Source of the DNA: Thermanaerosceptrum fracticalcis
GTDB taxonomy: Bacteria; Bacillota; Peptococcia; DRI-13
Assembly: GCF_000746025.2 (NCBI RefSeq)
Contig: NZ_CP045798.1
Span: forward strand, 668,501-732,500
Direction of reading: 5' to 3'
DNA length: 64,000 nucleotides
Shown here: piece after piece, positions 21,458-47,992 of the stretch
Position numbering within the stretch: position 1 is the stretch's first letter
How the letters are laid out: every line of letters begins with the position of its first letter
Program-made: the position numbers and the translations under genes
Notes under the pieces: generated by a model
The model's database searches: none
Told to the model about the DNA's origin: nothing
The model's input: the letters and a program-made list of their open reading frames with translations, nothing else

Positions 21458-24400
21458 ATGAGTTTTGTTAAGAAAATAATTGATGGAATTAAAAAGGTAT
21501 TTTCAGGCTCAAAATATCGGGTAGTTCTATCCATTGAAAACAAGCGAATAGTTTTAAATACATATAAAGGAACCAGAAAAGTGCCTTTTACTCAGTTATT
21601 GAACAAACATATGGAGTTGGGCAAGCTGTCACCTTGCATAAAAAAGGAGAAAGAACGTTTAGTAATACCGTTTGAAAACTTGGAACAGGTAAAAACGGAA
21701 TTATCCTTTATAAATTCCGTGGATCAGAATAACCAGCTTGAAGTTTTGATACCTGAGGAAATTAAAACGCTAAAACCGATTAATATACCTGCAAAATTTG
21801 AAATTAATTATAGCTGGAGTGATGCAGAGCAAGTTATTCTTCAAAAAATGGAGGGGACATATTTCGGAAAAGGCTGGTTTGTTTCAAAAAATGGCTATTG
21901 GAACATACCAGGACTGAACGAAAACGATGAGTTATGGCTCGATAAAACCAAAATTCAAGGAAAAGAAATTCTTGAGTTCGTCAGCCATGTCATCTCTGAA
22001 TGGGAAAAACGCGGGCTCCCTGTAAAATGCGAGATAAGTACGGGAACGGAACCTGCCTTTATAATTAGGATTAACGAAGTTGGAGAGAACTCAATCGGAT
22101 GTGAAATCCTGTGGAGGGTAAAAGCAGAAAGTATTAGTGAAATACCCTCTGTGGAAGGGTATGTTATTTCAGAACATATTCTTTGTGAGGGGCTTAATGT
22201 AGCAAAGCTTCCTGTAAAACTGCCTTTGCAAAGTAAAAGCTTTTCCCTACTGGGGGATGATATCGCTGTCTTTCAGAAGCATATTCTTCCAAGGATCAGA
22301 AAATGGACACAGGGTAATGTGGAAGAATTGGCTAAGATGCATCGCATCCTGGAAAGTGCCGGGGAGTTAGTTCTATTGGTGGAAAGAAAGGAATTGAACA
22401 GTGTAGGCACCGCTGAAGCAGTTCCGCTTTTTGTTTGTGAAAAAGAACGAGTAAAGGCAGAAGAAATCTCCCGTAAAATTTTACCCGAGACAAAATATAT
22501 CCGGTTGAACACCGGCTGGTATCCAGTGGAAAAACTGAAACAGCTGGGTCTTGGGCCTATGGGGCGACTGATGGATGGGACATCATTAAGCAATTACATA
22601 AAACTTACCACCACTGAAATTCTTCGGAGGGGGTCGGAACGTTTTGATGGCCCTTGGCAGCGTATTGAATTTCCGGAGATAAAGCTTCCGGCTGACGATA
22701 CTCCATATAGTATTGCGCTCAAGCATCTGGATTTTTTGGAGCAATGGGGAATTCCAGGCGGATTTATCGGAACATTTGCCGAATATCAGACTACAGTGCT
22801 TGAAAATCTTGCAAAAGTGCTGCAAAAATCACCAAAAGTCAGGATACTAATAGTAGGGAAAAAAGTCCTTTTTGACGGTATGTCGGAGAAATGGAAACAG
22901 ATCCTTTCCGGAAGATATGATGGGAACAAAAAAGACCCGGAGTTGAAGGCAAATACAGCAGGAGTGTTTGCGGCAACACCCAATGCTTTGGAGCTTTATC
23001 CGGGGCTAAGCCAGGCTAAGTGGGATATTCTTTTGATTATGGAACCTGATGCCTTAGTTAAATCCAGTACATCAAGGTTATTCAACAATCTTGTCTCATG
23101 TAAAGCCCGTGTGGTGCTAGGTGTTTTTACAGGTACTGAATTTTATAGCCACCGGCAGTCCTTTGAAGCGCTTTCAACAATATTTGGCATACAGGATAGG
23201 GAGATAGGCTGGAAATATGGGCTGCGAAACCCTAATGAGAAAAGAGTCGTTTTACCGCCGCCTTACAGACTCAAATACAAACCTGTGAATAACAAGAATC
23301 TACAAGGGTATCCTGCTGAATTAACTGTCAAAAGCGATTTCCCAGATAAAACCATGCCTATTCCGCCTAGAACAGAAAAGAGGATACAGGTTTCTGATAA
23401 AGAAAATTCAGGGATTGTTATCTCCATAAGTATTGAGAACTCCAATCGTTATTACAGTGGAGACAGCTCTTTTGTAGAAGAAGCGAAAAAAAGGGTTGGA
23501 TATGTGGAGTATAGCGCAAAATTCATACCGTTCATGTCTTACTGGCCAACTTATAATTCCATGAGCCGTGAACAGCAAAAATGGTACTTTTACTGGCGGG
23601 GGCAGGTGCGTAAAGGTATCTATCACGATACAGACCTATCGTATATATTTGTGCATGTCTATGAATTGATTAACAACGTAGGTGTTAGAGACCCGATGGA
23701 CGGGTATTGGCAGTTGTATAATGTGTGGATTAATTATCGGGAATGCTTTCCGAAGTTAGACCATTACCTGGTAGACTGGATTACCGATTATGTCGCGTTG
23801 CACAAGTGTAACGTTGACCTTCTTGAGATATATAAACAGCTTGTCAACAGGAATATTTATTCATTTTATCCGGATATACTTCTGGCAAGCTATAGTAAGT
23901 TGGGGTTACCCCAGCTTCCATTAGCTCTGATTAATCAACTGACAGATTATAATGTTCTGCGGAGCAAGTTTTACAACGAAGGCTGCCAGGCCCTTTTAGA
24001 AGAGTATATACCCAAGACCATAGAAAAAGTGAATGCCTACCTGTTACAAAAGCATCATTTAGGAATTCTGGACTTCTTCAAACCAAGTCAGACGGAAAAG
24101 ATCCAAAGAGAGCCCTTCCGCAGTGCTGTTTACTGCCATAAAAGCAGTCGCGAGATTACTATCGAGACTGTTCCTTTCACTAAGCACAAGCCTTTGCGGG
24201 ATTTCCTCACAAGTGTAGTAAAGCACACTGAAAACAAGCTCAGGGAGATTAAAGGGTATACGGGAAGGCTTCGGGGGTATACGATAGAACCCGATATCAT
24301 GAAATGGATAGATGATTATTTAACTTCCGAACTAAAAGGACCGGAAATAACGGTAAAACCGTCTCCCAAGATTGAGATAGACGCTTCAAAGGTGGCACAG

Positions 24401-25120
24401 TTAATCAAAGACTCCGATAAAGTGCGGGATATGCTGATTGCAGACGAAGGTGTTACTGAAGTTCCTGGTAAAGTACAGAATGTTGAACCAACAATAATAG
24501 CTGGTAGAATCGAAAGACCGCCAGGTACGCTGGACAAACTACTCACTGATTTGGAACCTGTCCACCAGATGCTTAGGGTGCTCGACCGCCAGCAATTGCA
24601 TTTGCTCAGAGTCCTGGCAGAACATCAGTGGGAGCTGGGAGACAAAGAACTTAACGGGCTATTTCCGGATATGTTTATTGACCCTGTTGTAGACAGCATC
24701 AATGAGGTATCTCTCAAGTACGTCGGAGATCTGCTTATTGCTGTTGAAAGAGATAAAAAGGTTGTTGCCGACGATTTCCGGGATGAACTGGAGTACCTGT
24801 TGCCCCGTCTGGAAGAACCAACGATTCAAAAGGCGGAAGATACCTACAAGGCTTTAGACTTGCCTGAAGAATGGGAACGCTTCAGAGCGAATATTTCAGC
24901 CTTCCAATATAAAGCCCTTTTAGCCATTGTAAAGCAAGAAGATTTGGTATCAAGCATAAACAGAATTGCCGAGGAGAGCTTTATGATGCCGGAAATGCTA
25001 ATTGATTCCATAAACGAATTAGCACTGGAGAATATTGGAGACATGATTATTGAAGTGGAGTCTTTTCCGCCGGTAATCAATGAAGAATACCTGGAAATGG
25101 TTAAAAAAATTACCGCATGA
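21458..25120 (+). CDS. TerB-N/TerB-C domain protein with a degenerate helicase-like region
   Basis: This large cytoplasmic protein (1220 residues) heads the cluster. The N-terminal 400 residues are not recognised. Residues about 415-590 (LKHLDFLEQWGIPGGF, VRILIVGKKVLF, KWDILLIMEPDALV) resemble one lobe of an SNF2-type helicase without recognisable ATP-binding motifs. From about 690 comes a TerB-N-like domain (SYWPTYNSMSREQQKWYFYWR, cut short here). The C-terminus is TerB-C-like with two copies of a DSINE...IGD motif near 1081 and 1182. Comparative work on tellurite-resistance (Ter) domains has linked such proteins to helicases and DNA processing, and the next two genes fit that. A role as scaffold or sensor is inferred. 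Confidence 0.75.
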   Translation: MSFVKKIIDGIKKVFSGSKYRVVLSIENKRIVLNTYKGTRKVPFTQLLNKHMELGKLSPCIKKEKERLVIPFENLEQVKTELSFINSVDQNNQLEVLIPEEIKTLKPINIPAKFEINYSWSDAEQVILQKMEGTYFGKGWFVSKNGYWNIPGLNENDELWLDKTKIQGKEILEFVSHVISEWEKRGLPVKCEISTGTEPAFIIRINEVGENSIGCEILWRVKAESISEIPSVEGYVISEHILCEGLNVAKLPVKLPLQSKSFSLLGDDIAVFQKHILPRIRKWTQGNVEELAKMHRILESAGELVLLVERKELNSVGTAEAVPLFVCEKERVKAEEISRKILPETKYIRLNTGWYPVEKLKQLGLGPMGRLMDGTSLSNYIKLTTTEILRRGSERFDGPWQRIEFPEIKLPADDTPYSIALKHLDFLEQWGIPGGFIGTFAEYQTTVLENLAKVLQKSPKVRILIVGKKVLFDGMSEKWKQILSGRYDGNKKDPELKANTAGVFAATPNALELYPGLSQAKWDILLIMEPDALVKSSTSRLFNNLVSCKARVVLGVFTGTEFYSHRQSFEALSTIFGIQDREIGWKYGLRNPNEKRVVLPPPYRLKYKPVNNKNLQGYPAELTVKSDFPDKTMPIPPRTEKRIQVSDKENSGIVISISIENSNRYYSGDSSFVEEAKKRVGYVEYSAKFIPFMSYWPTYNSMSREQQKWYFYWRGQVRKGIYHDTDLSYIFVHVYELINNVGVRDPMDGYWQLYNVWINYRECFPKLDHYLVDWITDYVALHKCNVDLLEIYKQLVNRNIYSFYPDILLASYSKLGLPQLPLALINQLTDYNVLRSKFYNEGCQALLEEYIPKTIEKVNAYLLQKHHLGILDFFKPSQTEKIQREPFRSAVYCHKSSREITIETVPFTKHKPLRDFLTSVVKHTENKLREIKGYTGRLRGYTIEPDIMKWIDDYLTSELKGPEITVKPSPKIEIDASKVAQLIKDSDKVRDMLIADEGVTEVPGKVQNVEPTIIAGRIERPPGTLDKLLTDLEPVHQMLRVLDRQQLHLLRVLAEHQWELGDKELNGLFPDMFIDPVVDSINEVSLKYVGDLLIAVERDKKVVADDFRDELEYLLPRLEEPTIQKAEDTYKALDLPEEWERFRANISAFQYKALLAIVKQEDLVSSINRIAEESFMMPEMLIDSINELALENIGDMIIEVESFPPVINEEYLEMVKKITA

Positions 25121-25135
25121 AGATAGGTGGTTTGT

Positions 25136-26464
25136 ATGAGTCAAATGAAGATACCGAAGAGAATCAGTACTGCATTGATTCATTCCTTGTCCGCGGGTGT
25201 GGTTCCCCGCATTGGCTTGGAGTATATTGCTGTGGGACGAAAGGATGAAATTGAATCACTGTTGGCTGACCTTGAAAACGTTGCGGAGGGGGGAGCCTCC
25301 TTCCGGCTTGTAGTAGGGCGATATGGAAGCGGCAAGAGCTTTCTGATGCAGATCATCCGCAATTATGCGATGGAAAGAGATTTCGTGGTTGCAGATACCG
25401 ATTTGTCACCAGAGCGCCGTTTGGTGGGGGCTAAGGGGCAGGGGTTAAGTACATACCGTGATCTCATCACCAACATGTCTACTAAAACCAGGCCTGATGG
25501 GGGGGCTCTGGCCTCAATCCTAGAGCGATGGATATCGGGAATCCAGATGCAAGTAGTTAAAGATACGGGGTTACGGCCTAATGACAACGGCTTTGGAGAG
25601 GCAGTGGAGGTAAAAATCCTGGAGGTTGTCAACAGTATTGAAGGAATGGTGCATGGGTTTGACTTTGCCAATGTTGTGATCACCTACTGGAATGGATACC
25701 GGCAGGGGGATGATGCTAAAAAGAGTGCTGCACTGCGCTGGCTTCGCGGTGAATTTGCGACCAAGACCGAAGCGAGAACTTTCATGAATGTCCAGATGAT
25801 TATTGATGACGAAAGCTGGTATGACTACATCAAACTAATGGCCTCATTTGTCTCGCACATCGGATATAAGGGTTTGGTAATCTTTATAGATGAGGGTGTT
25901 AATCTGTATAAGATTACCAACTCCGTTTCCAGGCAAAGCAATTATGAAAAGCTCCTGACCATGTTTAACGACACTATGCAGGGGAAAGCGCAGAATCTTG
26001 GAATTATTCTGGGTGGAACCCCCCAATTCGTAGAGGACCAGAGAAGGGGGTTGTACTGTTATGAGGCCTTGCGTACCAGGTTCTCGGAAAGCCGGTTTAC
26101 AAAAGACGGTTTTCGTGACCTCACCGGACCCATTATCCGTCTTCAAACCCTAACCCATGAAGAAATATTCGTTCTTTTAAATCGCTTGTTGGAAGTTCAT
26201 AAAAACCACTATGGTTATGAGCCGGCAATCTCCTCAAACGACATAATCGAGTTTATGCAGGCGGTGGCAGGCCGTATGGGTGCGGATGAGCTTTTGACAC
26301 CAAGAGAGGTTGTCAGGGATTTTATTAGCATTCTGAACATACTGCACCAGAATCCGGATATCTCCTTTGGTCATGTTCTGCATGGACCGGATTTCCAGAT
26401 AAAATCAGCCGATAAAGACCCGGACCAGATAGATGAAAGTGAATTTGCGGAGTTTACGTTATGA
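25136..26464 (+). CDS. BrxD-like (DUF2791) AAA+ ATPase
   Basis: This P-loop ATPase of about 442 residues is of the BREX BrxC/BrxD family (PF10923). Walker A is GRYGSGKSF (about 61), Walker B is VIFIDEG (about 248), and a sensor-like region LGIILGGTPQF follows. The ATG at 25136, 6 bases after AGGTGG, is preferred over a GTG at 25127. The stop overlaps the helicase start as ATGA, so the two are translationally coupled. In BREX the relative works with a helicase. Here no PglX, PglZ or BrxC gene is present, so the ATPase belongs to a different assembly. Confidence 0.88.
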   Translation: MSQMKIPKRISTALIHSLSAGVVPRIGLEYIAVGRKDEIESLLADLENVAEGGASFRLVVGRYGSGKSFLMQIIRNYAMERDFVVADTDLSPERRLVGAKGQGLSTYRDLITNMSTKTRPDGGALASILERWISGIQMQVVKDTGLRPNDNGFGEAVEVKILEVVNSIEGMVHGFDFANVVITYWNGYRQGDDAKKSAALRWLRGEFATKTEARTFMNVQMIIDDESWYDYIKLMASFVSHIGYKGLVIFIDEGVNLYKITNSVSRQSNYEKLLTMFNDTMQGKAQNLGIILGGTPQFVEDQRRGLYCYEALRTRFSESRFTKDGFRDLTGPIIRLQTLTHEEIFVLLNRLLEVHKNHYGYEPAISSNDIIEFMQAVAGRMGADELLTPREVVRDFISILNILHQNPDISFGHVLHGPDFQIKSADKDPDQIDESEFAEFTL

Positions 26465-28650
26465 GCGTGAATCCTTTTTACAGACTAGCTCCTTTTATCC
26501 AGGAATACATTTACAATCATGGTTGGACGGAACTGCGGGCAGTCCAGGTTGAAGCCTGCAGGGTTATTTTTGAGTCGGAGGCCCACCTGCTGCTGGCCGC
26601 GGGAACTGCGGCGGGAAAAACCGAAGCCGCGTTTTTACCGGTGATAACCCTGCTCCATGAAAATCCGTCTACGACCATTGGCGCTCTCTATATCGGTCCG
26701 TTGAAGGCCTTAATCAACGACCAGTTCATGCGACTCAACGATTTGCTTGAAGAAGCACACATTCCGGTTTGGCACTGGCATGGAGATGTTTCCCAAAGCC
26801 ACAAAAACAAGATGATGAAAGATCCAAAGGGGATTTTACAGATTACACCCGAGTCTCTAGAGAGTATGTTGATTAACAGGAGCACCGATATTTTGCGACT
26901 GTTTTCCGACCTTCGGTTTATCATCATCGATGAAGTACACGCCTTTATGGGGACAGACCGTGGAAGCCAGGTGCTCTGCCAATTAGAACGGTTGATGCGG
27001 TTGACCTGCATCCAGCCCAGGAGAATAGGACTTTCCGCAACACTGGGCGATTATTCCCTAGCAGAGAAATGGTTGGCCTACGGAACTGGAAAGACGGTTA
27101 TAACACCGAAAATACAGTCTGGGCAGCAAAAGTTCCGTTTGGCTGTAGAACACTTTTACATAGATAACGAAGAGGATGAAGAACCTCAAAGGCAAGCTGG
27201 TTCTCCCTATGACGAATATATTTTTAACCAGTCCATAAACAGGAAATGTTTAATTTTTGCAAATAACCGGGAACAGACAGAGCATACTATTGCTACTCTG
27301 CGTCAGATGGCGGAAGGCAAAAAAATGTCGGATATTTATCATGTTCATCATGGAAGTATCTCAGCTCCTCTCCGGGAAGCAGCGGAGAAGGCAATGAAGG
27401 ATTCACAGGAGCCTTGTATCACTGCTGCTACCGTTACGTTAGAGCTGGGCATTGATCTGGGACAACTGGAACGGGTCATCCAACTGGAAACACCTTTATC
27501 TGTTTCAAGCTTTTTACAGAGGCTGGGGCGTTCGGGAAGAAGGGGTACTCCTTCTGAAATGTGGCTTGTTTGCAAGGAGGAAAAGCCGGTACAAAATGAT
27601 CTACTACCTAACCAGATTCCTTGGTCTCTTCTTCAATCCATTGCCATAATCCAGCTTTATTTGGAAGAAAGGTGGATTGAACCTGTAAAGCAGAAAAAGT
27701 ATCCTTTCAGCCTGCTGTACCATCAGACCATGAGCACACTGGCTGCCATGGGAGAATTGGCTCCCGCGGCACTTGCGCAGAGAGTATTAACGTTGAGTCC
27801 CTTTAAAGACATACCGAATGAAGATTTCAGGCAACTATTACTATACTTGATTGAAATTGACCATATCCAGAAAACAGATGAAAGAGGTCTGCTCATCGGA
27901 TTGGCCGGGGAGCAGGTGGTTGGTAGTTTCCGCTTCTACGCAGTATTTCCGGATAATGAGGAATATTCTGTACGGGATGAGTCAAAGGAAATAGGCAGTA
28001 TTCTATCCCCGCCTCCGAAAGGGGAGCGTTTTGCTTTGGCTGGTCGTACATGGGAGGTTCTTGACATTGATATAAAACGTAAAACTATTTACGCAAAAGC
28101 TGTAAAGGGAAAAATCAAAACATCGTGGAGCGGCGGGAGCGGGAATGTCCATACAAAAATACTCCAGCGTATGAAGAAAGTCTTGCAGGAAGATATGGTA
28201 TACCCTTACCTTCAGCCCGGCGCTGTTGACAGGTTGAATGAAGCCCGCAAGTTAGCACGTGAGACTGGTCTATTGAAAGACAATATACTTTCTCTGGGAG
28301 GAGACAGCTATTGTTTATTCCCCTGGATGGGAACTGTGGCTTACCGGACTCTGGACAGGTGTTTGCGCTATGTTGGAGCAGATTTATTTGGCATACGGAA
28401 TGTAGGAGGTTTTTCGCCTTATTTCCTAATCTTTAGCATGCATGACAGTCAAGGGTTTGAAATTGAGGCTACACTAAGGGAGATTATGGATCGTGTTGTT
28501 GATATTCAGCAGTTAGTAAGCGAGGATGAAGCACCAAAACTGGAGAAATATGATGAATTTATCCCACCAGCTTTGCTCAGGAAAGCGTTCATCTATGATT
28601 ATCTGGACCTGAACGAAGCAAGACATTGGCTGTTTAATCAATTAGGCTGA
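26461..28650 (+). CDS. Lhr/YprA-like superfamily 2 DNA helicase
   Basis: 729 residues with the full DEAD/DEAH motif set: GTAAGKT (48-54), LKALINDQ, TPESLESML, DEVH (157-160), SATLGD, FANNREQTE, TLELGIDLG and QRLGRSGRRG (about 355). The C-terminal 300 residues are family-specific and probably include a winged helix. It should translocate on nucleic acid using ATP. Coupling by ATGA overlap to the BrxD-like ATPase, with the TerB protein before it, makes a three-gene core. TerB-domain, DUF2791 and helicase proteins are known to associate in genomes, but the biochemical task is unknown. Confidence 0.88.
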   Translation: MSVNPFYRLAPFIQEYIYNHGWTELRAVQVEACRVIFESEAHLLLAAGTAAGKTEAAFLPVITLLHENPSTTIGALYIGPLKALINDQFMRLNDLLEEAHIPVWHWHGDVSQSHKNKMMKDPKGILQITPESLESMLINRSTDILRLFSDLRFIIIDEVHAFMGTDRGSQVLCQLERLMRLTCIQPRRIGLSATLGDYSLAEKWLAYGTGKTVITPKIQSGQQKFRLAVEHFYIDNEEDEEPQRQAGSPYDEYIFNQSINRKCLIFANNREQTEHTIATLRQMAEGKKMSDIYHVHHGSISAPLREAAEKAMKDSQEPCITAATVTLELGIDLGQLERVIQLETPLSVSSFLQRLGRSGRRGTPSEMWLVCKEEKPVQNDLLPNQIPWSLLQSIAIIQLYLEERWIEPVKQKKYPFSLLYHQTMSTLAAMGELAPAALAQRVLTLSPFKDIPNEDFRQLLLYLIEIDHIQKTDERGLLIGLAGEQVVGSFRFYAVFPDNEEYSVRDESKEIGSILSPPPKGERFALAGRTWEVLDIDIKRKTIYAKAVKGKIKTSWSGGSGNVHTKILQRMKKVLQEDMVYPYLQPGAVDRLNEARKLARETGLLKDNILSLGGDSYCLFPWMGTVAYRTLDRCLRYVGADLFGIRNVGGFSPYFLIFSMHDSQGFEIEATLREIMDRVVDIQQLVSEDEAPKLEKYDEFIPPALLRKAFIYDYLDLNEARHWLFNQLG

Positions 28651-28665
28651 AAGGAGGTAAGAATA

Positions 28666-29796
28666 TTGAAACCGGTAAAAATACTGCATTGTGCAGACTT
28701 CCATTTCGATACTCCATTTCGTGAACTTTCAGGCACAGTAGCCGAGAAGCGGAAGGAAGATCTGAGAGAAACCTTCGGCAGGGTGGTAAATCTCGCAAGG
28801 CAGGAACGAGTAGACATCATGTTATTATGCGGTGATCTTTTTGATAACCAAATGGTTAGCCGCATGACTATTGATTACCTTATCAGTAAACTGCGCGAAA
28901 TACCGGAAGTACGGGTATTTATTTCACCAGGCAACCACGATCCGTACAATGAAAATTCCTATTATCAGCTGGTTCAGTGGCCGGAAAATATTCATATTTT
29001 TAAGAACACACTAGAAAAGGTAGAGATACAAGAACTTAATACATGTGTCTATGGCAGAGGATTTATCAGGCCGCACCAGCAGGATTCTTTATTGAAAGGA
29101 TTCTCTGTGGATGATTCCACGAAACTTAATATTATGACTCTTCATGGAGACGTTGTCCAACCTGGGCAGTGCAGCGACTACAACCCCATAACCCCTGAAG
29201 AAATCAAGGAAAGCAGACTGGATTACCTGGCTCTTGGCCACCGGCATTCCTATACAAATATTGCTAAAATGGATGACACATCCTGGGCTTACTGTGGTTG
29301 TCCCGAGGGCAGAGCTTTTGACGAACTGGGAGACAAGGGGATACTCCTCGGGGAGCTTCGCAAGGGTAGCTGTAATGTAGTATTTAAGAGTATCAGTAAA
29401 AGAAAATATTTTGAACTTAAAATAGATATAAGCAGTTGTAAGACTTATGAGGAAATAGGAGTAAGCACCCTGGAAAAAGCATCTGTCCTGGAACCGGGCA
29501 AAAACCTGTTTAAAGTAATCCTGCAGGGAGAGATTCCAGAGGATTTTATGTTAAATACCTCGGTGATTAAAGAAAAATTAGAGGATCAGTTTTATTTTCT
29601 TAAGGTTGAGGATGAGACTACAACCAGGGTTGATTCTGAATTGCTGGCAAATGATTTTACACTTAGAGGCGTCTTCGTCAAGAAAATGCTGGAACAAATT
29701 CGGCAAACCCAGGATCAAGCTGATCGTAGAAAAGCTGAATTGGCATTAAAATATGGCCTGCGCATACTCGAACAGGGGGAGGCAGGGATAGAATGA
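28666..29796 (+). CDS. yhaO: YhaO-like Mre11/SbcD-family DNA repair exonuclease
   Basis: Calcineurin-like metallophosphoesterase of 376 residues, expected to be a manganese-dependent nuclease acting on DNA ends. All metal motifs are present: CADFHFD (D11, H13), GDLFDN (about 56), GNHDP (about 89), LHGD and GHRH (about 192). A C-terminal part resembles the capping region that contacts the ATPase. It starts at TTG after a very strong AAAGGAGGT. Its stop overlaps the YhaN-like start as ATGA, the same pairing as yhaO-yhaN in Bacillus, so the two proteins form one complex. Confidence 0.88.
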   Translation: MKPVKILHCADFHFDTPFRELSGTVAEKRKEDLRETFGRVVNLARQERVDIMLLCGDLFDNQMVSRMTIDYLISKLREIPEVRVFISPGNHDPYNENSYYQLVQWPENIHIFKNTLEKVEIQELNTCVYGRGFIRPHQQDSLLKGFSVDDSTKLNIMTLHGDVVQPGQCSDYNPITPEEIKESRLDYLALGHRHSYTNIAKMDDTSWAYCGCPEGRAFDELGDKGILLGELRKGSCNVVFKSISKRKYFELKIDISSCKTYEEIGVSTLEKASVLEPGKNLFKVILQGEIPEDFMLNTSVIKEKLEDQFYFLKVEDETTTRVDSELLANDFTLRGVFVKKMLEQIRQTQDQADRRKAELALKYGLRILEQGEAGIE

Positions 29797-32545: not shown

Positions 32546-32586
32546 ACATAAGCTTATTTCTAACAAGTAGTGGAAGAGGGGATAAA

Positions 32587-33396: not shown

Positions 33397-33411
33397 ATGA
33401 CAGTGTTACCG

Positions 33412-41300: not shown

Positions 41301-41579
41301 AGTCCAGTATATAGCTATCTAAAGGCAAAGAATAATGAACCCGTGGTTCTTTCTGGTGTTATTGACCTTGCAATAAAAGAATCCGAGGGTTGGGTTATCG
41401 TTGACTTTAAGACAGACCGGCCTGAGAACCAGGAAGACTTTCAATTGCTGGAGAAAGAGTATTCAACTCAGGTAGCAATTTACTGTAATGTTTGGCAGCA
41501 ACTGAGTGGAGAAAACGTTAAAAAAGGGGAAATTTACTTTACATTCCTTCAAGAAAACAGGGTTGTCTATAGTTGCTGA
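38325..41579 (+). CDS. AddA/RecB-like helicase-nuclease
   Basis: 1084 residues. UvrD-type helicase with AGAGSGKTA (about 27), AAITFTRKAAAEL, GTIHAFCAKLL, VDEFQDTDPIQ (about 357), VGDPKQSIYRFR, MNLHKAKGLEAPVVFL and LLYVAATRAK. It ends in a PD-(D/E)XK nuclease with GVIDLAI (about 1011) and VDFKTD (about 1026). It should drive ATP-dependent unwinding and cutting of DNA ends together with the AddB-like protein encoded just before. Both nuclease sites look intact. The gene ends 95 bases before the vWA gene, in a region rich in TGACA/TGTCA repeats. Confidence 0.88.
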   Translation: MSRMTPPDYRERAKIETELGKNLLVEAGAGSGKTASLVKRMLGLIKEGHCKVHEIAAITFTRKAAAELCERFQTELEKAYNLNCDTVQKERLAQALLDLDQCYIGTIHAFCAKLLRERPVEAGLDPEFAELDEVENRIWRDKAWDSYILEVKIKEPYYLELFDKLGISLAELKTGFEKLSAYPDVAIVYQKTGKPDLKEPIDRLVSLVERARVAIPYPPHENRYDKLQEAVKRASRYIKYFDMAQDKNAIKLLSIFEKEPSVTQKLWLTTAQGKQFRDEFALLAREIIQPLLRQWREYCHGNVVQFLLPAVQYYSRFREKHSVLNFEDLLMKTAQLLKSYPEVRQYFQQKYRCLLVDEFQDTDPIQSEIMFYLTGENANEQEWQKLKPRPGSLFVVGDPKQSIYRFRRADIDIYNLVKKLILQSGGEVLHLTANFRSVNSLGRWLNPVFKKLLPSEGSCYQASFTSFDTIKPDEEGTESGIRVLDIPEEYSNKDEVIPIEAEFIARYIRWAIDGNVRLRRTPRPKDFMILLRYKEAMDVYARALEKYGIPVSIAGGSSLKQTEEIHELLQLLKALADPQNQVHTVAVLRGLFFGISDADLYSFKEAGGIFNIFAPVPAELDERVKDIFFYSYEKLTEFYGFTRRYTPAVALEKIIDELGLIPYALTQPLSKSRSGYPYQILEYIRRIESTEASSYSKMVEQFGAILEMGVEEELNLLADEGDSVRIMNLHKAKGLEAPVVFLANPAKNPNIPPDAHVKRVDGSSQGYFIFTRPKGNFNKEVIAQPRLWDEFASEEQNYADAEEMRLLYVAATRAKNLLVVSRCLNPKKQNLNPWLPLLDNEEQVESLWLPEIDKGYSIVQSLGKEDVIPSHLEKVQTELTQRTAVLAKPSFILSSPTGIKVDEDKAQILRKSGGGQDWGSAIHKVLEQMIKGCNDIDTQILLTLEEYSLPLERKGEILDFLDKFKNSLLWQRIQKAEQTLTEIPFTTKITNDSPVYSYLKAKNNEPVVLSGVIDLAIKESEGWVIVDFKTDRPENQEDFQLLEKEYSTQVAIYCNVWQQLSGENVKKGEIYFTFLQENRVVYSC

Positions 41580-41627
41580 CAAAAATGTTGTCATTTGCAA
41601 AAATCATACTGACAATCTACTGTCAGT
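41575..41627. promoter_or_regulatory. Cluster palindrome 3 with a neighbouring half-related repeat
   Basis: The core CTGACAATCTACTGTCAG is at 41609-41626, extended by A and T to a 7-bp stem, 65 bases before the vWA start. About 17 bases upstream lies TGACAAAAATGTTGTCA (41576-41592), another TGACA/TGTCA dyad that overlaps the AddA-like stop. Two adjacent dyads suggest cooperative binding of one regulator. Confidence 0.6.
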
Positions 41628-41673
41628 CACCTCGTGTATTCTTATCTTAGAGAGTACAGGAGGTGTTTTTTAT

Positions 41674-42921
41674 ATGAATGAGAAAATGGGTATGGAGTTA
41701 TCTTTAAGCCACAAATACCTAAAACCCGGTAGTTGCCAAGTGGTTTACCTGATGATCCGGCTGAAGCAACCCAGATTTGAGAATGCAAAGCGACTTCCTC
41801 TAAATGTAAGTTTCGTATTGGATCGTTCAGGTTCCATGGAAGGGAAAAAGTTGGATTACACCAAAAAAGCCGTGAAGTTTGCTCTTGAGCACCTGGAGGC
41901 TAAAGATACTGTCTCACTGGTAACTTTCGAGGACCAAGTAGAGGTTCTGGTTCCTGCTGAGAAAGCATTATATAAGGACCAAATAAGCCAGGCTGTCAAC
42001 GGAATCGTGACCGGCGGATGTACTAATCTAAGCGGAGGTTTATTGAAAGGAGCGGCGCAGGTCAAGGCCAATCTGAAGGATGGGCAGGTTAACCGTGTGA
42101 TCCTGTTGACCGATGGGATAGCTAATAAGGGAATTACCAGTCATCATGCGCTTGTTGAAAAGACCAAGGAGATTAAGGCTGGGAATATAACAGTATCAAC
42201 ATTAGGTGTAGGATCAGATTTTCAGGAGGATTTGCTTGTTGACATGGCTGAAGGGGGAGGGGGTAACTTCTATTTCATCGGAAGCCCTGACAGAATTCCT
42301 GAGATATTTGATCAGGAATTACAGGGGCTGCTAAGTATTACAGGTCAGAATCTGGAGTTAGCTCTGCTTCCTGCGGCTGGGGTTAAGATCATGGGTATCC
42401 TTGGCTATGAGCCCGCAGGTTGGCCTGAGGTCAAAATTATGCTCCCAGATATGTATGGAGGCGATACCAAAACTGTTTTAGTGGAAATGCTAGTTAATCC
42501 GGAGGTGGCGGGGAAGACGCAGTTGGTACAAGTGAAATTTCGCTATGACGATGTTTTGGAGAACCTGACCACTGTCAATTATGATGTCACACTCAGCGCT
42601 GAAGTTTCCAATGACCAGGAAAGTATCAATTCAGGCGTAGATATCCAGGTCTTAAAAGAGGTAGAGATTTACCGAACTGCTCAGGCTAAAGAAGAATCAA
42701 TTAAAATGGCCGACCAAGGCAATGTAGCGGAAGCAGGGCGAGTGTTGAAGAATCAGCAAGAAAAACTACAAGAACTGTACAATAGAACGAAAGATGATGA
42801 GATTTTGCAGGAAATCCAAACTTTGGAATCGAATTATACGATTATCTCTGAGAATTGTTATAGTCCGATTAATCGCAAAGAAATGAAATACGCCAGCTAT
42901 GTCTCCCGGAATAAACGATAA
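41674..42921 (+). CDS. von Willebrand factor A domain protein
   Basis: 415 residues from an ATG preceded by CAGGAGGTG. A longer frame upstream to 41506 has no support. The N-terminal vWA domain has a complete metal-dependent adhesion site: DRSGS (about 50), TNLSGG and LLTDG (about 144). The domain fold continues to about 260 and resembles inter-alpha-trypsin-inhibitor/YfbK-type proteins. The C-terminal 100 residues are helical (EEVEIYR..., KNQQEKLQEL). No signal peptide is present, so it acts in the cytoplasm, perhaps as a metal-dependent assembly platform. vWA proteins (TerY) are also partners in Ter systems. Confidence 0.85.
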   Translation: MNEKMGMELSLSHKYLKPGSCQVVYLMIRLKQPRFENAKRLPLNVSFVLDRSGSMEGKKLDYTKKAVKFALEHLEAKDTVSLVTFEDQVEVLVPAEKALYKDQISQAVNGIVTGGCTNLSGGLLKGAAQVKANLKDGQVNRVILLTDGIANKGITSHHALVEKTKEIKAGNITVSTLGVGSDFQEDLLVDMAEGGGGNFYFIGSPDRIPEIFDQELQGLLSITGQNLELALLPAAGVKIMGILGYEPAGWPEVKIMLPDMYGGDTKTVLVEMLVNPEVAGKTQLVQVKFRYDDVLENLTTVNYDVTLSAEVSNDQESINSGVDIQVLKEVEIYRTAQAKEESIKMADQGNVAEAGRVLKNQQEKLQELYNRTKDDEILQEIQTLESNYTIISENCYSPINRKEMKYASYVSRNKR

Positions 42922-42965
42922 AGACCTATTAGAATGGAATTAGGGAAAAGAAGCAAGCGGGAGAG

Positions 42966-43916
42966 ATGAATATGCATGAAGATAGAGTTTTTATCGCCGA
43001 AATGAAGGAAGGGAGCAAAATATCTGCTCCTTTCCTGATCAAATCGAAGAGGCTACTGCCCTTTAAAAACAAGACTGGAAAGTTTCTTAATATGATCTTA
43101 GGCGACAAGACTGGGCAAATTGAGGCCTTTCTTTGGGAAAATGCCGAAGATTGTCTAGCACATTTGGGAGAATGTCTTGTTGCCAAAGTGGAAGGGGAAG
43201 TAGAAACATATCGAGAGAACATCCAGATCAAAGTTAATTCCCTAATACCCTGCGACTGTTATGTTATCGAAGAATTGGTGCCTGTCTCTTCCAAGGATAT
43301 TGGCATCATGCAGGTTGAACTAGGGGATGTAATAGAAACAATAAATGATAAAAACCTAAAATACTTACTTAATATGATCACTAATGATCCTGTGAGATAT
43401 AAACTGTTTTGCCGTGCCCCTGCTGCCCAATTTCACCATCAGGCCTATCTTGGAGGACTATTGGAGCATACTTTGGGTGTTGTCAGGGTATGTACTCGTT
43501 TAGCCGATATATATAAAGATGTTAACCGTGATTTGTTAGTTACCGGGGCCATTCTTCATGACATTGGGAAGACGATTGAGTTATCTTACGATCTTATGAT
43601 TGGTTATACGGACCAGGGTCGTCTGCTAGGTCATATTGTCCTTGGTTCGCAAATAGTTGTTGATTTAATTAAACAGATACCGGATTTCCCCAAAGACTTA
43701 GAACTGAAGATTATACATATGATAGTGAGCCACCATGGTGAGTATGAGTGGCAGTCTCCCAAAAGGCCAAAGTTTTTGGAAGCAATGTTGCTCCACTATG
43801 CAGATATGATTGATGCCAAGGTAGATAAATTTACCCAGGTAAAAGAAGATTTAGGAGAGGGACAGGTCTGGTCGGGATGGATAAAAGGATTGGATCGTTA
43901 TGTCTATCTTAAGTAG
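42966..43916 (+). CDS. yhaM: YhaM-like 3'-5' exonuclease (OB fold plus HD domain)
   Basis: 316 residues. An N-terminal OB-fold nucleic-acid-binding part (FLNMILGDKTGQIEAFLWEN) is followed by an HD phosphohydrolase-type nuclease domain with HHQAYLGGLLEHTL (about 157), ILHDIGK (about 196) and VSHHGEYEW. In Bacillus YhaM degrades single-stranded RNA and DNA from the 3' end and is encoded beside YhaO and YhaN. Here all three relatives occur in one cluster but are separated by the AddAB-like genes. The ribosome site GGGAGAG precedes the ATG. Confidence 0.88.
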   Translation: MNMHEDRVFIAEMKEGSKISAPFLIKSKRLLPFKNKTGKFLNMILGDKTGQIEAFLWENAEDCLAHLGECLVAKVEGEVETYRENIQIKVNSLIPCDCYVIEELVPVSSKDIGIMQVELGDVIETINDKNLKYLLNMITNDPVRYKLFCRAPAAQFHHQAYLGGLLEHTLGVVRVCTRLADIYKDVNRDLLVTGAILHDIGKTIELSYDLMIGYTDQGRLLGHIVLGSQIVVDLIKQIPDFPKDLELKIIHMIVSHHGEYEWQSPKRPKFLEAMLLHYADMIDAKVDKFTQVKEDLGEGQVWSGWIKGLDRYVYLK

Positions 43917-43924
43917 GTGAGAAA

Positions 43925-45166
43925 ATGAGCAGGCTGGAGCGGGAGATCCGCATCTACCAGGGGATTGTTGATCAACTGAAAGAGGGCAGAATTGTAGAAA
44001 CCGGTGAGTTATGCACTCTGTTGGGGATTAACGAAAAGACGCTCTTTACTTATCTGGAGTCTGCAGATGCGGCCCTTGATGTGAGCCGGATTTGCCACAA
44101 CGGTAATCTGCTGTGTCGGGAAACTGTTCGACAGTATAACACTGAAAACAGAGTCAGGATCAGCAAGGACATGAACAAATCGGCCCGTCTGGCCAAACTC
44201 ATCAACATTTTAAACCAGCGGACTCCTGCGGGGGGAGCAACACTACAGGAATTGGCGGAGAAGCTGGAAGTTACGGAGAGAACCGTCTACAGGGACCTCT
44301 GTGAGCTTGAGCTGGAGCTAAGCGTGAAAATAATCAGGCCGGACAAAATTGCGGGTAAGAAGGGCAGATACAGGTTGGAGAACACCTACCTTCCTCCCGT
44401 CAGCCCCGATAAAGCCCTCTTCATCTATCTCAGCCTGCTGCAGCAAAAGGGAACGCCTCTTGCCGGCAGAATCACCGAGATCAAGCAAGCCCTGCTGACC
44501 TCCTTGAGCAAGAACCGCTACAGCATCCGGGATATTTCCCTGAACAAGCTGGAGGAGCGCATCCACATTGTTGATCAAAGCCTTTATGAGCAGGAGCGGG
44601 TGGGGCGCTGCTTTCTCACCATCCTGGAAGGACTGGATAAAGGCCTGACATTAAAGATCAAATACTTCGTAGCCTACCGCCTGGAGACGACGGAGCGCCT
44701 GGTGGAGCCCTACGGCCTGATCTGCAAGCATCACAACTGGTACTTAATCGGCAAAAGCCTGGACAAAGGAGAACTGCGCAATTTCCGCCTGGACCAGGTA
44801 GAAGAAGCCCTGCTCTACAGAGAAAAGCCTTTTGTCTACCCCAGGGATTTCTCCGTCAGCGATTATGCCCATGACAGCTGGGGCGTCATCCAGGACGAAG
44901 AAGTCGTGGAAGCCATCCTGCGCTTCACCCCGGAAGGGGGCTACCGCCTGAAGAAAGTCCAGTACCACCCCAGCCAGGAGATCCTGGAAGAAAAGCCCGA
45001 CGGTTCCGTGGTTGTCCGCTTTTGCCTGACGGGTACGGTGGAATTCATCAGCTGGCTTTTGCAGTGGGGGAACAAGGTGGAGGTGCTGGCCCCGTCGGAG
45101 CTGCGAGAGCAGGTGTTAAAAACGGTAGAGGGGATTGTGAAGGTTTACAACAATACGTGTATTTAG
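43925..45166 (+). CDS. WYL-domain transcriptional regulator
   Basis: 413 residues. A first helix-turn-helix (LCTLLGINEKTLFTYLES) is followed by an HTH_11-type one (LQELAEKLEVTERTVYRDL, about 108-126), then a WYL domain (YGLICKHHNWYLIGKSL, FRLDQVEEALLY) and a WCX-type C-terminus. WYL proteins bind ligands, often nucleic acids, and repress defence operons (BrxR, CapW types). It starts 8 bases after the YhaM-like stop and 11 before the next gene. It is the only clear transcription regulator in the block and the best candidate to bind the three palindromes. From about 44200 on, the bases look more GC-rich than in the genes before it. Confidence 0.9.
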   Translation: MSRLEREIRIYQGIVDQLKEGRIVETGELCTLLGINEKTLFTYLESADAALDVSRICHNGNLLCRETVRQYNTENRVRISKDMNKSARLAKLINILNQRTPAGGATLQELAEKLEVTERTVYRDLCELELELSVKIIRPDKIAGKKGRYRLENTYLPPVSPDKALFIYLSLLQQKGTPLAGRITEIKQALLTSLSKNRYSIRDISLNKLEERIHIVDQSLYEQERVGRCFLTILEGLDKGLTLKIKYFVAYRLETTERLVEPYGLICKHHNWYLIGKSLDKGELRNFRLDQVEEALLYREKPFVYPRDFSVSDYAHDSWGVIQDEEVVEAILRFTPEGGYRLKKVQYHPSQEILEEKPDGSVVVRFCLTGTVEFISWLLQWGNKVEVLAPSELREQVLKTVEGIVKVYNNTCI

Positions 45167-45177
45167 GGGGTGCATCA

Positions 45178-46248
45178 ATGAATTTTAATCCTGAAGAACT
45201 GACTCCCATTTTTCATTCAGAAATATCCAGTAGCTACATCCTGATGGAGTTTCTGCGCCAAGGAGAAAACTGCCTTAAGTTTTTAGCATACATGTACAAA
45301 AAAGGCCTGGGTCCGTTAAATCCCCAGAATTACCGGGTGGAGTCTATAGAACGTGAAAAGATGTATAAAGGCAAGGGGGCCATCGATATCTACATCAGGC
45401 TGAAACACGCATCTGGCAGGTCGATTATTGTGCTGATTGAGGTTAAGGTCCATGACTACGACAGCTACAAGTTCAACCAGATCGGGACCTATTTCGAGGC
45501 AGCAAGAGAAAGCGAGGACAGCCAGGATATCTACTTCATCTACCTGACACAGTTTAATAAGCAGTGCTTTCAGGACAAAACCGACGTCTCCCAGCCGGGA
45601 ACAGTCGAGGAGTTTCGCGGGGCAGAGACGGACTATCCCGGCCGGATTGCGCATGTCAGCTGGCCCGACTTCTACGCCTTTATCGACGAGAAGATTGCTA
45701 CCATCACACCCACACTAGAGCATCTTGTCATTCTGCAACGCACATGGATAACGGATAAGATCAAAAGGGACCTGGCAAAGTATGCGGTTAACACTCTGGA
45801 TCGGGAATTCGGTTACTATTTTCCCAATACCCAACAGCGCATGCAGGAGTTGAAGGAATTGGGCGAAGAGAAAGCCAAACGCGGCGCAAAAGTGTTGGAG
45901 ATTGACTTAAAGAAGCTCTCGGCGGATGAGGTCATGAAGATCGCCGAGGTAATTGAGCATTACGCCGACAGCAAGGATGTGGAACGCAAGGCAAGCTACG
46001 TGACTGGAGAAGATACATTGAATGCAGTCCGAAAATTTCTCGGGGAGCTTGTCCTCAGACCTGAGAACTGGTCGCTTTTGTCCTTCTACTTCAGGGTGTT
46101 TTCCATCTTCCAGACCCGGTCATATCTACTCTTGAACGGTACGGGTTCGCAAGGGTACTCTGTCAAGCTAAAGACCGTCACAGCCAGGGAAATTAGCCTG
46201 TGTACACTGTGGAAGAACCATGTTATTGATTTTCGGCTGGCGAGGTAG
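45178..46248 (+). CDS. PD-(D/E)XK nuclease family protein
   Basis: 356 residues from the ATG at 45178 with ribosome site GGGGGTG. The earlier frame at 45022 overlaps the regulator gene and is rejected. The nuclease core is visible as GAIDIYIRL (D), then IVLIEVKVHD (E-x-K), and a downstream glutamine region QIGTYFEA, as in the PDDEXK_4/restriction-like group. The C-terminal half (EELGEEKAKRGAKVLEIDL..., cut here) is helical with no assignment. It probably cleaves DNA as an accessory or as the restriction arm of the cluster. It has a GC-rich style like the end of the WYL gene. Confidence 0.78.
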   Translation: MNFNPEELTPIFHSEISSSYILMEFLRQGENCLKFLAYMYKKGLGPLNPQNYRVESIEREKMYKGKGAIDIYIRLKHASGRSIIVLIEVKVHDYDSYKFNQIGTYFEAARESEDSQDIYFIYLTQFNKQCFQDKTDVSQPGTVEEFRGAETDYPGRIAHVSWPDFYAFIDEKIATITPTLEHLVILQRTWITDKIKRDLAKYAVNTLDREFGYYFPNTQQRMQELKELGEEKAKRGAKVLEIDLKKLSADEVMKIAEVIEHYADSKDVERKASYVTGEDTLNAVRKFLGELVLRPENWSLLSFYFRVFSIFQTRSYLLLNGTGSQGYSVKLKTVTAREISLCTLWKNHVIDFRLAR

Positions 46249-46299
46249 AACTTAACGATGTGTTAGGAGGAAGAATTTTGATCGAATTGGGGTGTTGAT

Positions 46300-47121
46300 T
46301 TGAGAATTCTGTGTACTGGAGATCTCCATTTGGGACGTAAACGTAGAAGACTCAACCCAGATATGTTAATAACAGGAGATACCAAAATACTGGATAATAT
46401 TGTACATACCGCCAAGGAAGAACAGGTTGATTGTCTGTTTATACTAGGAGATCTGTTTGACTCAGATGATATTAGTTCAAATATTAAGGAGATTTGTTTA
46501 GATAAGTTCAGCCAACTTAAAGAAACCCATATCTATATCTTTCCCGGAAACCATGATTTAGGAATTAATCTTAACTCACCCCAAATCACATTTTTTAATG
46601 AATCCATGGCAAGAAAGATATCTGATGACATAACAGTTTACGCCTATGACCATAAAAAAGGCTTAGATTTAGCTGACTGGAATGAGGATAAGAAGAGTGG
46701 GTTTAACATCATTTGTGGGCATTTAGCTGTTAGAGAACTTCAACTTGACAAACAACGAAATGCTGGAATCAGTGTGAGTACGCATGATATTGCTCATTGG
46801 AAGGCAGATCTGGTGTTATTAGGCCATGATCATAACACCAGATTCTTGAAACAAGGAAATAAAATACTCGCTACTTATGTTGGTGCTCCATATAACATAT
46901 ATGAAAACGAGTTAGTTGCTAGGGGAGTAGTCATTTGTGAAATTGATAAAGGTCAAGTCAATTTAAGATTTAGGAGACTTGAATGTCCGCCCGAGTTCAA
47001 GGTTAAAGCAGCCCATATGCGTACAGCAGAAGAGATTAATACTAGATATGGTCCGGTTACAGTTGGGGAATACACTTGGAAATTGATTGGCTCCCATGTA
47101 GTTAACAATTTTTCAATGTGA
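46300..47121 (+). CDS. Second Mre11/SbcD-like metallophosphoesterase
   Basis: 273 residues with CTGDLHLG, LGDLFDS, FPGNHDLG, ICGHLAV and LGHDHN, the full set of metal-binding motifs. It starts at TTG after GGGGTG. It is shorter than YhaO and lacks the long C-terminal ATPase-binding part, so it looks more like phage or plasmid SbcD-type nucleases. No second Rad50-like gene is next to it. The DNA is clearly more AT-rich than the two genes before it, which points to a separate origin from the 44-46 kb genes. Confidence 0.82.
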   Translation: MRILCTGDLHLGRKRRRLNPDMLITGDTKILDNIVHTAKEEQVDCLFILGDLFDSDDISSNIKEICLDKFSQLKETHIYIFPGNHDLGINLNSPQITFFNESMARKISDDITVYAYDHKKGLDLADWNEDKKSGFNIICGHLAVRELQLDKQRNAGISVSTHDIAHWKADLVLLGHDHNTRFLKQGNKILATYVGAPYNIYENELVARGVVICEIDKGQVNLRFRRLECPPEFKVKAAHMRTAEEINTRYGPVTVGEYTWKLIGSHVVNNFSM

Positions 47122-47167
47122 TTATTTTGGGATATTTTGTATACGAGGTTATACGAGGTGTAATGAT

Positions 47168-47992
47168 ATGGCCGATCAACAACACAATAACTATCCGGAT
47201 ACGTTAATGTTAATTCAAAACAGCTTCACAACAATACTTCTAGACGCTATTCAGTTTTATCCTCAGGAGTCAAAAAGACATAAAGCTGAGTCGCATGGTC
47301 TTTTATTTGGTAATATTCAAAAAGGTATTTTTGAGTGTGATTATATTTTCCCTGTTGGGAATGTAGCATATAGAAAAGACGATGAAATAAAAAATAACCC
47401 CAAAGTGGATGAGGCTATTAAGAATGCAAAACATTTATTATCTACCTCAAAATGTTACGGTGACTATCATAGTCACCCAAATACTTTGAGCTTTAATGGT
47501 TGGGCCGGACCTAGTAACATGGATGTTTTATATGCAAAAAGTTTAAAACTACCTTATATGATTATCATCGCAATTTCAAGAAGTTCATTATTCGAAAAAC
47601 AACTGTCCATCGAATGTTTACGTAGTAAAAGAAAAGAATACCACTACGAAAAAAAGGCAGGAGACCATGATTGCCCTCGTGAGGAGTTAATTGAAGGTGA
47701 ATCCGCTTATATCGAGGGTAGGTTCAAAAAATATAAGTTTGAAATGAGGGCCTACAAATACGAGGCTAATTGTCTTCGAGAGATAAATCTAATCTCATCA
47801 GAGGCGGAGATGCTGATTGAATTAATTAAGAATGATATAGATATTGAAAATTTAATGCCAGAGATGACTTATGGGCTTCGGAAGATCGAGTATGATTTTA
47901 GAGTACTTGGCACACAAGATAATAACAATATGGAAAGAGCAAAGCAAAATTTACTATACCATATAAATAGAATTAAAGGACTAAAGGGGTAA
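47168..47992 (+). CDS. JAB/MPN-domain metalloprotease-like protein
   Basis: 274 residues. The JAMM zinc site is visible as glutamate in ESHGLLFG, HSHP in GDYHSHPNTL (about 98-107) and the serine/aspartate pair in GPSNMD. JAMM proteins remove ubiquitin-like tags or amino-acid extensions, and in bacteria they occur in defence operons with E1/E2-like enzymes. No ubiquitin-like, E1 or E2 gene is present in this window. The rest of the protein (about 150-274) is helical and unassigned. It lies 46 bases after the Mre11-like gene, so the two may form a small unit. An IS4-group element follows directly. Confidence 0.8.
   Translation: MADQQHNNYPDTLMLIQNSFTTILLDAIQFYPQESKRHKAESHGLLFGNIQKGIFECDYIFPVGNVAYRKDDEIKNNPKVDEAIKNAKHLLSTSKCYGDYHSHPNTLSFNGWAGPSNMDVLYAKSLKLPYMIIIAISRSSLFEKQLSIECLRSKRKEYHYEKKAGDHDCPREELIEGESAYIEGRFKKYKFEMRAYKYEANCLREINLISSEAEMLIELIKNDIDIENLMPEMTYGLRKIEYDFRVLGTQDNNNMERAKQNLLYHINRIKGLKG

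What the first reader, a model, noticed from the sequence alone, without database searches (positions are those of the whole stretch)
21458..47992. A 26-kb one-strand cluster of DNA-end-processing machines around a TerB/BrxD-like/helicase core
Seen: fourteen adjacent same-strand genes with gaps of at most about 150 bases and four overlaps, encoding TerB-N/C, DUF2791 ATPase, Lhr-like helicase, YhaO- and YhaN-like proteins, NERD-helicase, AddB-like, AddA-like, vWA, YhaM-like, WYL regulator, PD-(D/E)XK, a second Mre11-like and JAB proteins. Known: TerB domains have been linked to DNA processing, DUF2791 belongs to BREX, and WYL proteins control defence operons. Inference: this is a large composite defence or break-processing system, bringing Mre11-Rad50-like and AddAB-like resection engines under one regulator. 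I know of no described system with this composition.
Basis: partly seen in the sequence, partly recalled or inferred. Interest (0 to 1): 0.9.

Follow-up and report, generated by a model that had tools for sequence, protein, structure and literature searches.

The report
Shango defence genes in mosaic island
The 26-kb gene block is a bacterial antivirus island in which a known three-gene defence system (Shango) sits next to several separate nuclease and regulator modules; it is not shown to be one new giant machine, although the Shango here has an unusual extra-long subunit.

Summary
The "TerB / BrxD-like / helicase" core at 21458-28650 is Shango (sngABC), an anti-phage system published in 2022-23, so the core is not undescribed. 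In 94 other Shango loci the other genes are absent, apart from one Mre11-like/JAB pair. Conversely, a divergent AddB-AddA pair, a YhaO-YhaN-like pair, NERD-helicases and a vWA-WYL pair all occur elsewhere without Shango.

The block is a mosaic. Against one distant relative (G038), the YhaO-YhaN segment is 92.7% identical in DNA, while the AddAB and vWA-YhaM-WYL parts sit at background divergence. G038 carries homologues of every gene type, spread over three contigs. Two of these contigs preserve overlapping fragments of the window's gene order, so the assembly is not pure chance. The YhaN-like gene is frameshifted, a terminator-like hairpin splits the block, and inverted copies of one IS bracket it.

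The one unusual feature is SngA: 1220 residues against about 530 in the PADLOC model. Its extra N-terminal half folds like a ZorD/SNF2 helicase lobe whose ATPase motifs are missing. About 11 of 91 loci have an SngA of similar length.

The parts
21458..25120 (+). SngA, long form (1220 aa): residues about 20-600 fold like a degenerate ZorD/SNF2 half, then TerB_N (661-866) and TerB_C (to 1215)
   Evidence: Pfam TerB_N 1.8e-45, TerB_C 8.5e-22; PADLOC SngA 2.5e-125, best stretch residues 617-1114; structure m5f79d0bd8e7b pLDDT 85, Foldseek top hit ZorD 8qy7
25127..26464 (+). SngB, BrxC/BrxD-type ATPase (445 aa), Walker A GRYGSGKS
   Evidence: PF10923 3.9e-172; PADLOC SngB 5e-199, BrxD 1.1e-52; motif
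26461..28650 (+). SngC, Lhr/BrxHI-type SF2 helicase (729 aa), DEVH box
   Evidence: PADLOC SngC 1.1e-255, BrxHI 1.8e-129
28666..29796 (+). YhaO/SbcD-like Mre11-type metallophosphoesterase (376 aa), GDLFD/GNHD/GHRH intact
   Evidence: PF00149 1.8e-16; Mre11/SbcD chains in the PDB; motifs
29793..32545 (+). YhaN-like SMC/Rad50-type ATPase gene, frameshifted near 30040 (87 aa with Walker A + 766 aa)
   Evidence: intact 918-aa ortholog in G038 (L151:12022-14778)
32587..33396 (+).
   Evidence: No Pfam, PADLOC or NCBIfam match; one other of 398 genomes (24% identity) and a fragment in G038 C7
33411..33445 (+). Terminator-like hairpin between the 269-aa gene and the NERD-helicase
33541..35184 (+). NERD nuclease-UvrD helicase fusion (547 aa)
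   Evidence: PADLOC RTasNERD-Hel 1.7e-77; Walker A and DEGQ present
35246..38332 (+). AddB-like protein (1028 aa), PD-(D/E)XK with AddB/Cas4-type Fe-S cysteines
   Evidence: PF12705 1.8e-33; TIGR02773 76.7 bits against cut-off 903.7; CPFAY and CKFCDYPEVC
38325..41579 (+). AddA-like UvrD helicase-nuclease (1084 aa)
   Evidence: PF00580 2.9e-58; PDB AddA 1.2e-50; TIGR02785 305 bits against cut-off 707.65
41671..42921 (+). vWA-domain protein (416 aa from ATG)
   Evidence: PF00092 1.3e-21; 57-59% homologues near WYL genes in G003 and G038
42966..43916 (+). YhaM-like OB-HD 3'-5' exoribonuclease homologue (316 aa)
   Evidence: PF01966, PF01336; PDB YhaM 3.1e-39
43925..45166 (+). HTH-WYL-WCX regulator (413 aa)
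   Evidence: PF13280, PF25583; PADLOC WYL 2.3e-35
45175..46248 (+). PD-(D/E)XK_4 nuclease (357 aa from ATG)
   Evidence: PF14281 2.9e-7
46300..47121 (+). Second Mre11/SbcD-like phosphoesterase (273 aa)
   Evidence: PF00149 8.6e-14; followed by JAB in G038 C41 as well
47168..47992 (+). JAB/JAMM peptidase (274 aa), HSHP...SNMD intact
   Evidence: PF14464 3.6e-6; 79% homologue in G038 C41
16983..21160 (-). Left IS4-like copy B (interrupted by an IS21-like element 18086-20622), about 99% identical to copy C
   Evidence: Self-comparison
48069..49704 (+). Right IS4-like copy C; inverted relative to B, the two bracket the block

Best explanation
This is an IS-bracketed defence island assembled from separable modules. 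Module 1 is a complete Shango system (SngA-SngB-SngC), the part most likely to act against phage; its SngA is a long variant whose N-terminal half is a degenerate ZorD-like SNF2 lobe, which I infer binds or senses DNA for the SngC helicase and SngB ATPase. The other modules were added laterally: a YhaO-YhaN (Mre11-Rad50-like) pair, now frameshifted; a NERD-nuclease/helicase; a divergent accessory AddB-AddA helicase-nuclease pair; a vWA-YhaM-WYL cassette, probably regulatory; a PD-(D/E)XK nuclease; and an Mre11-like/JAB pair. Shown: module identities, separability, mosaic divergence, frameshift, IS brackets. Inferred: phage defence by Shango in this host, DNA sensing by the SngA extension, WYL regulation of its neighbours, and nuclease activity of the accessory modules (catalytic motifs present).
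For: Shango identity. Separability: in 94 Shango loci, SngB and SngC are in all, SngA in 91, and none of the other block families appears at clear identity except an Mre11-like/JAB pair in G038. The divergent AddB family is in 25 of 398 phylum genomes including the window's own; in 27 of its loci there is no Shango, no YhaO-YhaN and no JAB in the stretches held. YhaO-YhaN-like pairs occur with no Shango in the stretches held in G014, G016, G025, G053, G068. NERD-helicases occur without AddAB in G010, G031, G062, G053. vWA-WYL in G003 precedes a 1579-aa protein and a Druantia DruE-like helicase instead. Mosaic: window vs G038 is 92.7% DNA over 28584-33396, but 64% over AddB-AddA and 58-66% over vWA/HD/WYL, while the canonical AddB of the two genomes is 49% identical in protein. 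Canonical AddB is present elsewhere in this genome (1248 bits), so the island copy is accessory. Frameshift. Terminator-like hairpin. IS brackets.
Against: In G038 two contigs carry overlapping fragments of the same order: SngC tail-YhaO-YhaN-269aa-NERDhel start on C7; NERDhel end-AddB-AddA-(about 12.5 kb of mostly metabolic genes)-vWA-YhaM-WYL-Mre11-like on C91. The Mre11-like/JAB pair lies a few kb behind a Shango on C41. So neighbours recur more than a random pile-up predicts, and G038 holds several genes that are very rare in 150 relatives (vWA 4, JAB 2, second Mre11-like 2). No expression or phage data exist here.
Confidence: 0.8

Rival explanations
1. One composite break-processing defence system: Shango senses or unwinds foreign DNA, and Mre11-Rad50-like and AddAB-like nucleases resect it, all under the WYL regulator.
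For: Tight same-strand packing; intact catalytic motifs in the nucleases; fragments of the same order in G038.
Against: Shango occurs without these genes in 94 other loci, with one partial exception, and the modules occur without Shango. YhaN is frameshifted, there is a terminator-like hairpin inside the block, and divergence is uneven. Shango gives phage protection as three genes in P. aeruginosa (PMC10250203).
Confidence: 0.08
2. The second half (NERDhel-AddB-AddA-vWA-YhaM-WYL-Mre11-like) is a conserved accessory defence or repair unit, independent of Shango, in which a regulatory or signalling cassette (vWA-YhaM-WYL) controls an AddAB-type nuclease.
For: Same order in G038 C91 at background divergence. 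WYL genes lie near the AddB-AddA pair in 5 of 27 AddB-family loci (L193, L194, L201, L219 and Salinibacter pSR116 L115).
Against: In G038 about 12.5 kb of mostly metabolic genes separate AddA from vWA. In G003 vWA-WYL sits by a DruE-like helicase, without YhaM or AddAB. Most AddAB loci lack vWA, YhaM and NERDhel.
Confidence: 0.2
3. The block is a composite transposon moved as a unit by the two inverted flanking IS4-like copies.
For: Inverted IS copies B and C, about 99% identical, end at 21160 and begin at 48069, immediately outside the block.
Against: The outer flanks share no target duplication. Copy C has its own imperfect 7/9 flanking match, suggesting independent insertion, and copy A lies elsewhere in the same window.
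Confidence: 0.1
4. A set of host DNA-repair genes (housekeeping AddAB, SbcCD-like and YhaM) that happens to lie beside Shango.
For: A YhaO-YhaN-like pair lies among ordinary housekeeping genes in Monoglobus (L116). In some AddB-family carriers no canonical AddB passes the cut-off.
Against: This genome has a canonical AddB elsewhere (1248 bits). The island AddA and AddB fall far below the AddAB cut-offs and are patchily distributed. The YhaO-YhaN segment was laterally shared.
Confidence: 0.07

Closest known systems
Shango (SngA TerB, SngB BrxD-like ATPase, SngC helicase)
   Same: Three genes, same order, same domains; PADLOC E-values 2.5e-125 / 5e-199 / 1.1e-255
   Different: SngA is 1220 aa. 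The PADLOC SngA model (528 positions) matches best over residues 617-1114; the N-terminal half is a degenerate SNF2/ZorD-like lobe seen only by structure
ZorD of Zorya (SNF2-type helicase-nuclease)
   Same: Top Foldseek match of SngA 1-650 (8qy7, E 4e-10, prob 1.0; 319 residues aligned over model 21-592)
   Different: SngA has one SNF2 lobe without recognisable Walker A or DEAH in all 10 homologues, joined to TerB domains; no sequence match
AddAB helicase-nuclease (B. subtilis type)
   Same: AddA-like gene overlapping behind AddB-like gene; PD-(D/E)XK in both; Fe-S-type cysteines in AddB; PDB AddA E 1.2e-50
   Different: Far below equivalog cut-offs (76.7 of 903.7 and 305 of 707.65 bits); accessory, patchy; a canonical AddB is present elsewhere in the genome
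YhaO-YhaN(-YhaM) of Bacillota, SbcCD/Mre11-Rad50-like
   Same: Metallophosphoesterase followed by SMC-type ATPase, as in several Bacillota genomes
   Different: The ATPase gene is frameshifted here; a YhaM homologue lies 10 kb away in another module
BREX (BrxD/BrxHI)
   Same: SngB and SngC resemble BrxD and BrxHI
   Different: No PglX, PglZ or BrxL gene in the block

Membership tests
Shango | TerB-domain SngA | tested here: met
   PADLOC SngA 2.5e-125; TerB_N and TerB_C over Pfam cut-offs
Shango | BrxD-type ATPase SngB with Walker A | tested here: met
   5e-199; GRYGSGKS
Shango | DEAD/DEAH-type helicase SngC adjacent, same strand | tested here: met
   1.1e-255; 4-bp overlap with SngB
Shango | Protection against phage | not testable with these tools
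   Shown for the PA14 system in PMC10250203, not for this locus
AddAB (canonical) | AddB equivalog score (TIGR02773 at least 903.7 bits) | tested here: not met
   76.7 bits; a canonical copy elsewhere scores 1248
AddAB (canonical) | AddA equivalog score (TIGR02785 at least 707.65 bits) | tested here: not met
   305.4 bits
AddAB (canonical) | Two adjacent subunits with helicase motifs in AddA and nuclease domains in both | tested here: met
   8-bp overlap; Walker A AGAGSGKT and DEFQ in AddA; PDDEXK_1 in both
YhaO-YhaN / SbcCD-like pair | Intact SMC-type ATPase gene next to the phosphoesterase gene | tested here: not met
   One-base frameshift separates Walker A from the rest; slippage on the A-run could rescue it, untested
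BREX | PglX methyltransferase and PglZ in the locus | tested here: not met
   None among the block's proteins
   94 Shango loci and 27 AddB-family loci; only partial linkage, in G038

The most novel reading that the evidence does not exclude
The long SngA defines a Shango subtype in which a catalytically dead ZorD-like SNF2 lobe serves as the DNA-sensing head of a TerB protein, linking Shango and Zorya mechanistically. In addition, vWA-(YhaM)-WYL would be a portable control cassette that is placed in front of different nuclease or helicase defences (Druantia-like in G003; PD-(D/E)XK and Mre11-JAB here).
Probability: 0.25. Interest if true: 0.55.

Novelty: new variant of a known kind. Interest (0 to 1): 0.38.

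Why it matters
It removes a claimed giant system from the list and replaces it with a known system plus separable modules. It also flags a Shango subtype whose large SngA carries a sequence-invisible, structure-visible SNF2/ZorD-like lobe. The mechanism of Shango was not given in the papers read here, so this is a concrete handle on it. The G038 comparison shows defence islands exchanging a 4.8-kb nuclease segment between distant lineages while neighbouring modules stay at background divergence.

Tried and rejected
Composite transposon: the outer IS ends share no target duplication, so this was not claimed. The 269-aa protein: no family match, and the single-sequence model was unusable (pLDDT 37), so no fold is claimed. 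SngA N-terminus by sequence: no PADLOC match and no meaningful PDB match; only the fold search gave a lead. Plasmid searches: the 269-aa protein, JAB and the second Mre11-like protein gave nothing; AddB gave three hits, the best a Salinibacter plasmid with a WYL gene upstream; vWA hits are numerous and distant, and the one examined sits in another context. Viral contigs: JAB and AddA gave nothing. Promoter-like sites in the block were at the level of shuffles (40 against 39.2) and were not used. Literature: no paper was found for the sngABC mechanism or a long SngA, but only open-licence papers are held. Organism names are not given for G handles, so the host species is not stated.

Full report
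WHAT IS THERE. The run 21458-47992 is real: 15 genes on the + strand, most gaps under 100 bp. Three corrections matter. A 269-aa gene of no known family (32587-33396) was overlooked. The YhaN-like gene is split by a frameshift near 30040: the G038 ortholog reads through as 918 aa, and the window is one base shorter in an A-rich stretch. A terminator-like hairpin (-12.3 kcal/mol, z -2.3) follows the 269-aa gene in the largest intact gap, 144 bp.

THE CORE IS KNOWN. The first three genes match PADLOC SngA, SngB and SngC at 2.5e-125, 5e-199 and 1.1e-255. [quoted passage not shown] aeruginosa cDHS1 and from E. coli (PMC10250203).

ARE THE OTHER GENES PART OF IT? tblastn of all block proteins found SngB and SngC in all 94 and SngA in 91. 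The other block families were absent except two weak AddA-like hits (26-27%), two weak WYL hits (21%), and an Mre11-like gene in G038 C41 at 53-56%, which is followed there by JAB at 79%. In the other direction, the AddB family occurs in 25 of 398 phylum genomes including this one, nearly always with AddA directly behind. In 27 such loci there was no Shango, YhaO-YhaN, vWA or JAB within the stretches held; five had a WYL gene nearby and three a NERD-helicase hit. Flanks were limited to about 10 kb and some contigs were short, so more distant linkage was not tested.

A PARTIALLY SHARED ORDER IN ONE RELATIVE. G038 (same class, different family) is the exception, and it is informative. Its contig C7 holds a 4.8-kb segment 92.7% identical in DNA to window 28584-33396. 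The segment begins with the last dozen or so codons of SngC (with an in-frame stop), continues through the YhaO-like gene, an intact YhaN and a broken copy of the 269-aa gene; after a roughly 1.4-kb insert come the first codons of the NERD-helicase. Contig C91 holds the last 90 codons of the NERD-helicase, then AddB (49%), AddA (53%), about 12.5 kb of mostly metabolic genes, then vWA (59%), YhaM-like (64%), WYL (50%) and an Mre11-like gene (35%) in the window's order. Contig C41 holds a diverged Shango (SngB 52%) and, a few kb on, Mre11-like and JAB. The canonical AddB of the two genomes is 49% identical, against 54-57% between the window's genome and three same-order genomes. So the AddAB and vWA-YhaM-WYL parts sit at background divergence, while the YhaO-YhaN segment moved recently between lineages. 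My reading is that fragments of one gene order exist in both genomes but have been assembled, broken and exchanged piecemeal. That is more structure than chance and less than a conserved system.

MODULES SWAP NEIGHBOURS. In G003 the vWA-WYL pair (57%, 56%) precedes a 1579-aa protein and a DruE-like helicase of Druantia, with no YhaM and no AddAB. YhaO-YhaN-like pairs stand without Shango in the stretches held in G014, G016, G025, G053 and G068 and among ordinary chromosomal genes in Monoglobus. NERD-helicases up to 72% identical stand without AddAB in G010, G031, G062 and G053. Canonical AddB is present elsewhere in this genome (1248 bits), and in 9 of 20 AddB-family carriers a canonical AddB passes the cut-off. 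The island AddB and AddA score 76.7 and 305 bits against cut-offs of 903.7 and 707.65, so the pair works like AddAB by anatomy but is not a member of that equivalog family.

ISLAND SETTING. Two inverted, about 99% identical copies of an IS4-like element end at 21160 and begin at 48069, bracketing the block; the left copy is itself interrupted by an IS21-like element. No target duplication joins the outer ends, so movement as a composite transposon is not shown. The surrounding window holds a methyltransferase, specificity-like and truncated HsdM genes, a dynamin-PLD protein resembling MkoB/LeoBC, and more transposases. It is a typical defence island.

THE UNUSUAL PART. SngA here is 1220 aa, and the PADLOC model matches best over residues 617-1114. 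An alignment of ten long homologues gave a confident model of residues 1-610 (mean pLDDT 85). Foldseek's best PDB match is ZorD of Zorya (8qy7, E 4e-10, prob 1.0), and residues 409-597 superpose on SNF2 ATPase lobes (Z about 18, rmsd about 3.1, 184 residues). The ZorD global superposition is poor (rmsd 36.8, TM 0.22), so the shared arrangement is less certain than the lobe itself. None of the ten homologues shows a Walker A or DEAH motif in the lobe, and no sequence search finds the relation. SngA lengths across 91 loci are mostly 500-710 aa, with a separate group of 11 at 1185 aa or more and a few intermediates; nine of those 11 were aligned here. I infer a dead SNF2 lobe used to bind or sense DNA; this is untested.

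VERDICT. The interpretation as a single composite system is not supported, though the defence role is. The finding is a mosaic defence island around a Shango variant.

Noticed in passing
window 21458-23300 (SngA residues 1-610): Long SngA with a degenerate SNF2/ZorD-like N-terminal half; shared by Desulfosporosinus, Chloroflexi, Deltaproteobacteria and Terriglobia loci (L002, L003, L005-L008, L013, L023, L064)
   Followed up: yes
window 16983-21160 and 48069-49704 (also 6795-8433): Three copies of an IS4-like element; two are inverted and bracket the whole block, and the left one is interrupted by an IS21-like element that has a 98% copy at 2082-4618
   Followed up: partly
L210 (G003:C35) 1-12110, - strand: vWA-WYL pair followed by a 1579-aa unknown protein and a DruE-like helicase; WYL and vWA are 56-57% identical to the window's
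   Followed up: partly
window 29793-32545: Frameshift in the YhaN-like gene within an A-rich run; could be decay, sequencing error or a slippage site
   Followed up: partly
window 52517-55450: HTH-dynamin-PLD fusion protein resembling MkoB, LeoBC and DrmC models, a possible further defence gene
   Followed up: no
window 49821-50582: NERD plus topoisomerase zinc-ribbon protein just outside the block; a 62% homologue lies about 7 kb beyond SngC in Desulfosporosinus hippei (L005)
   Followed up: no
L260:13711-18369: 1553-aa protein with no Pfam match directly behind the diverged Shango of G038
   Followed up: no
L009-L081: SngABC found in very many Paenibacillus species, closer to a genus-wide feature than a rare defence system
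   Followed up: no
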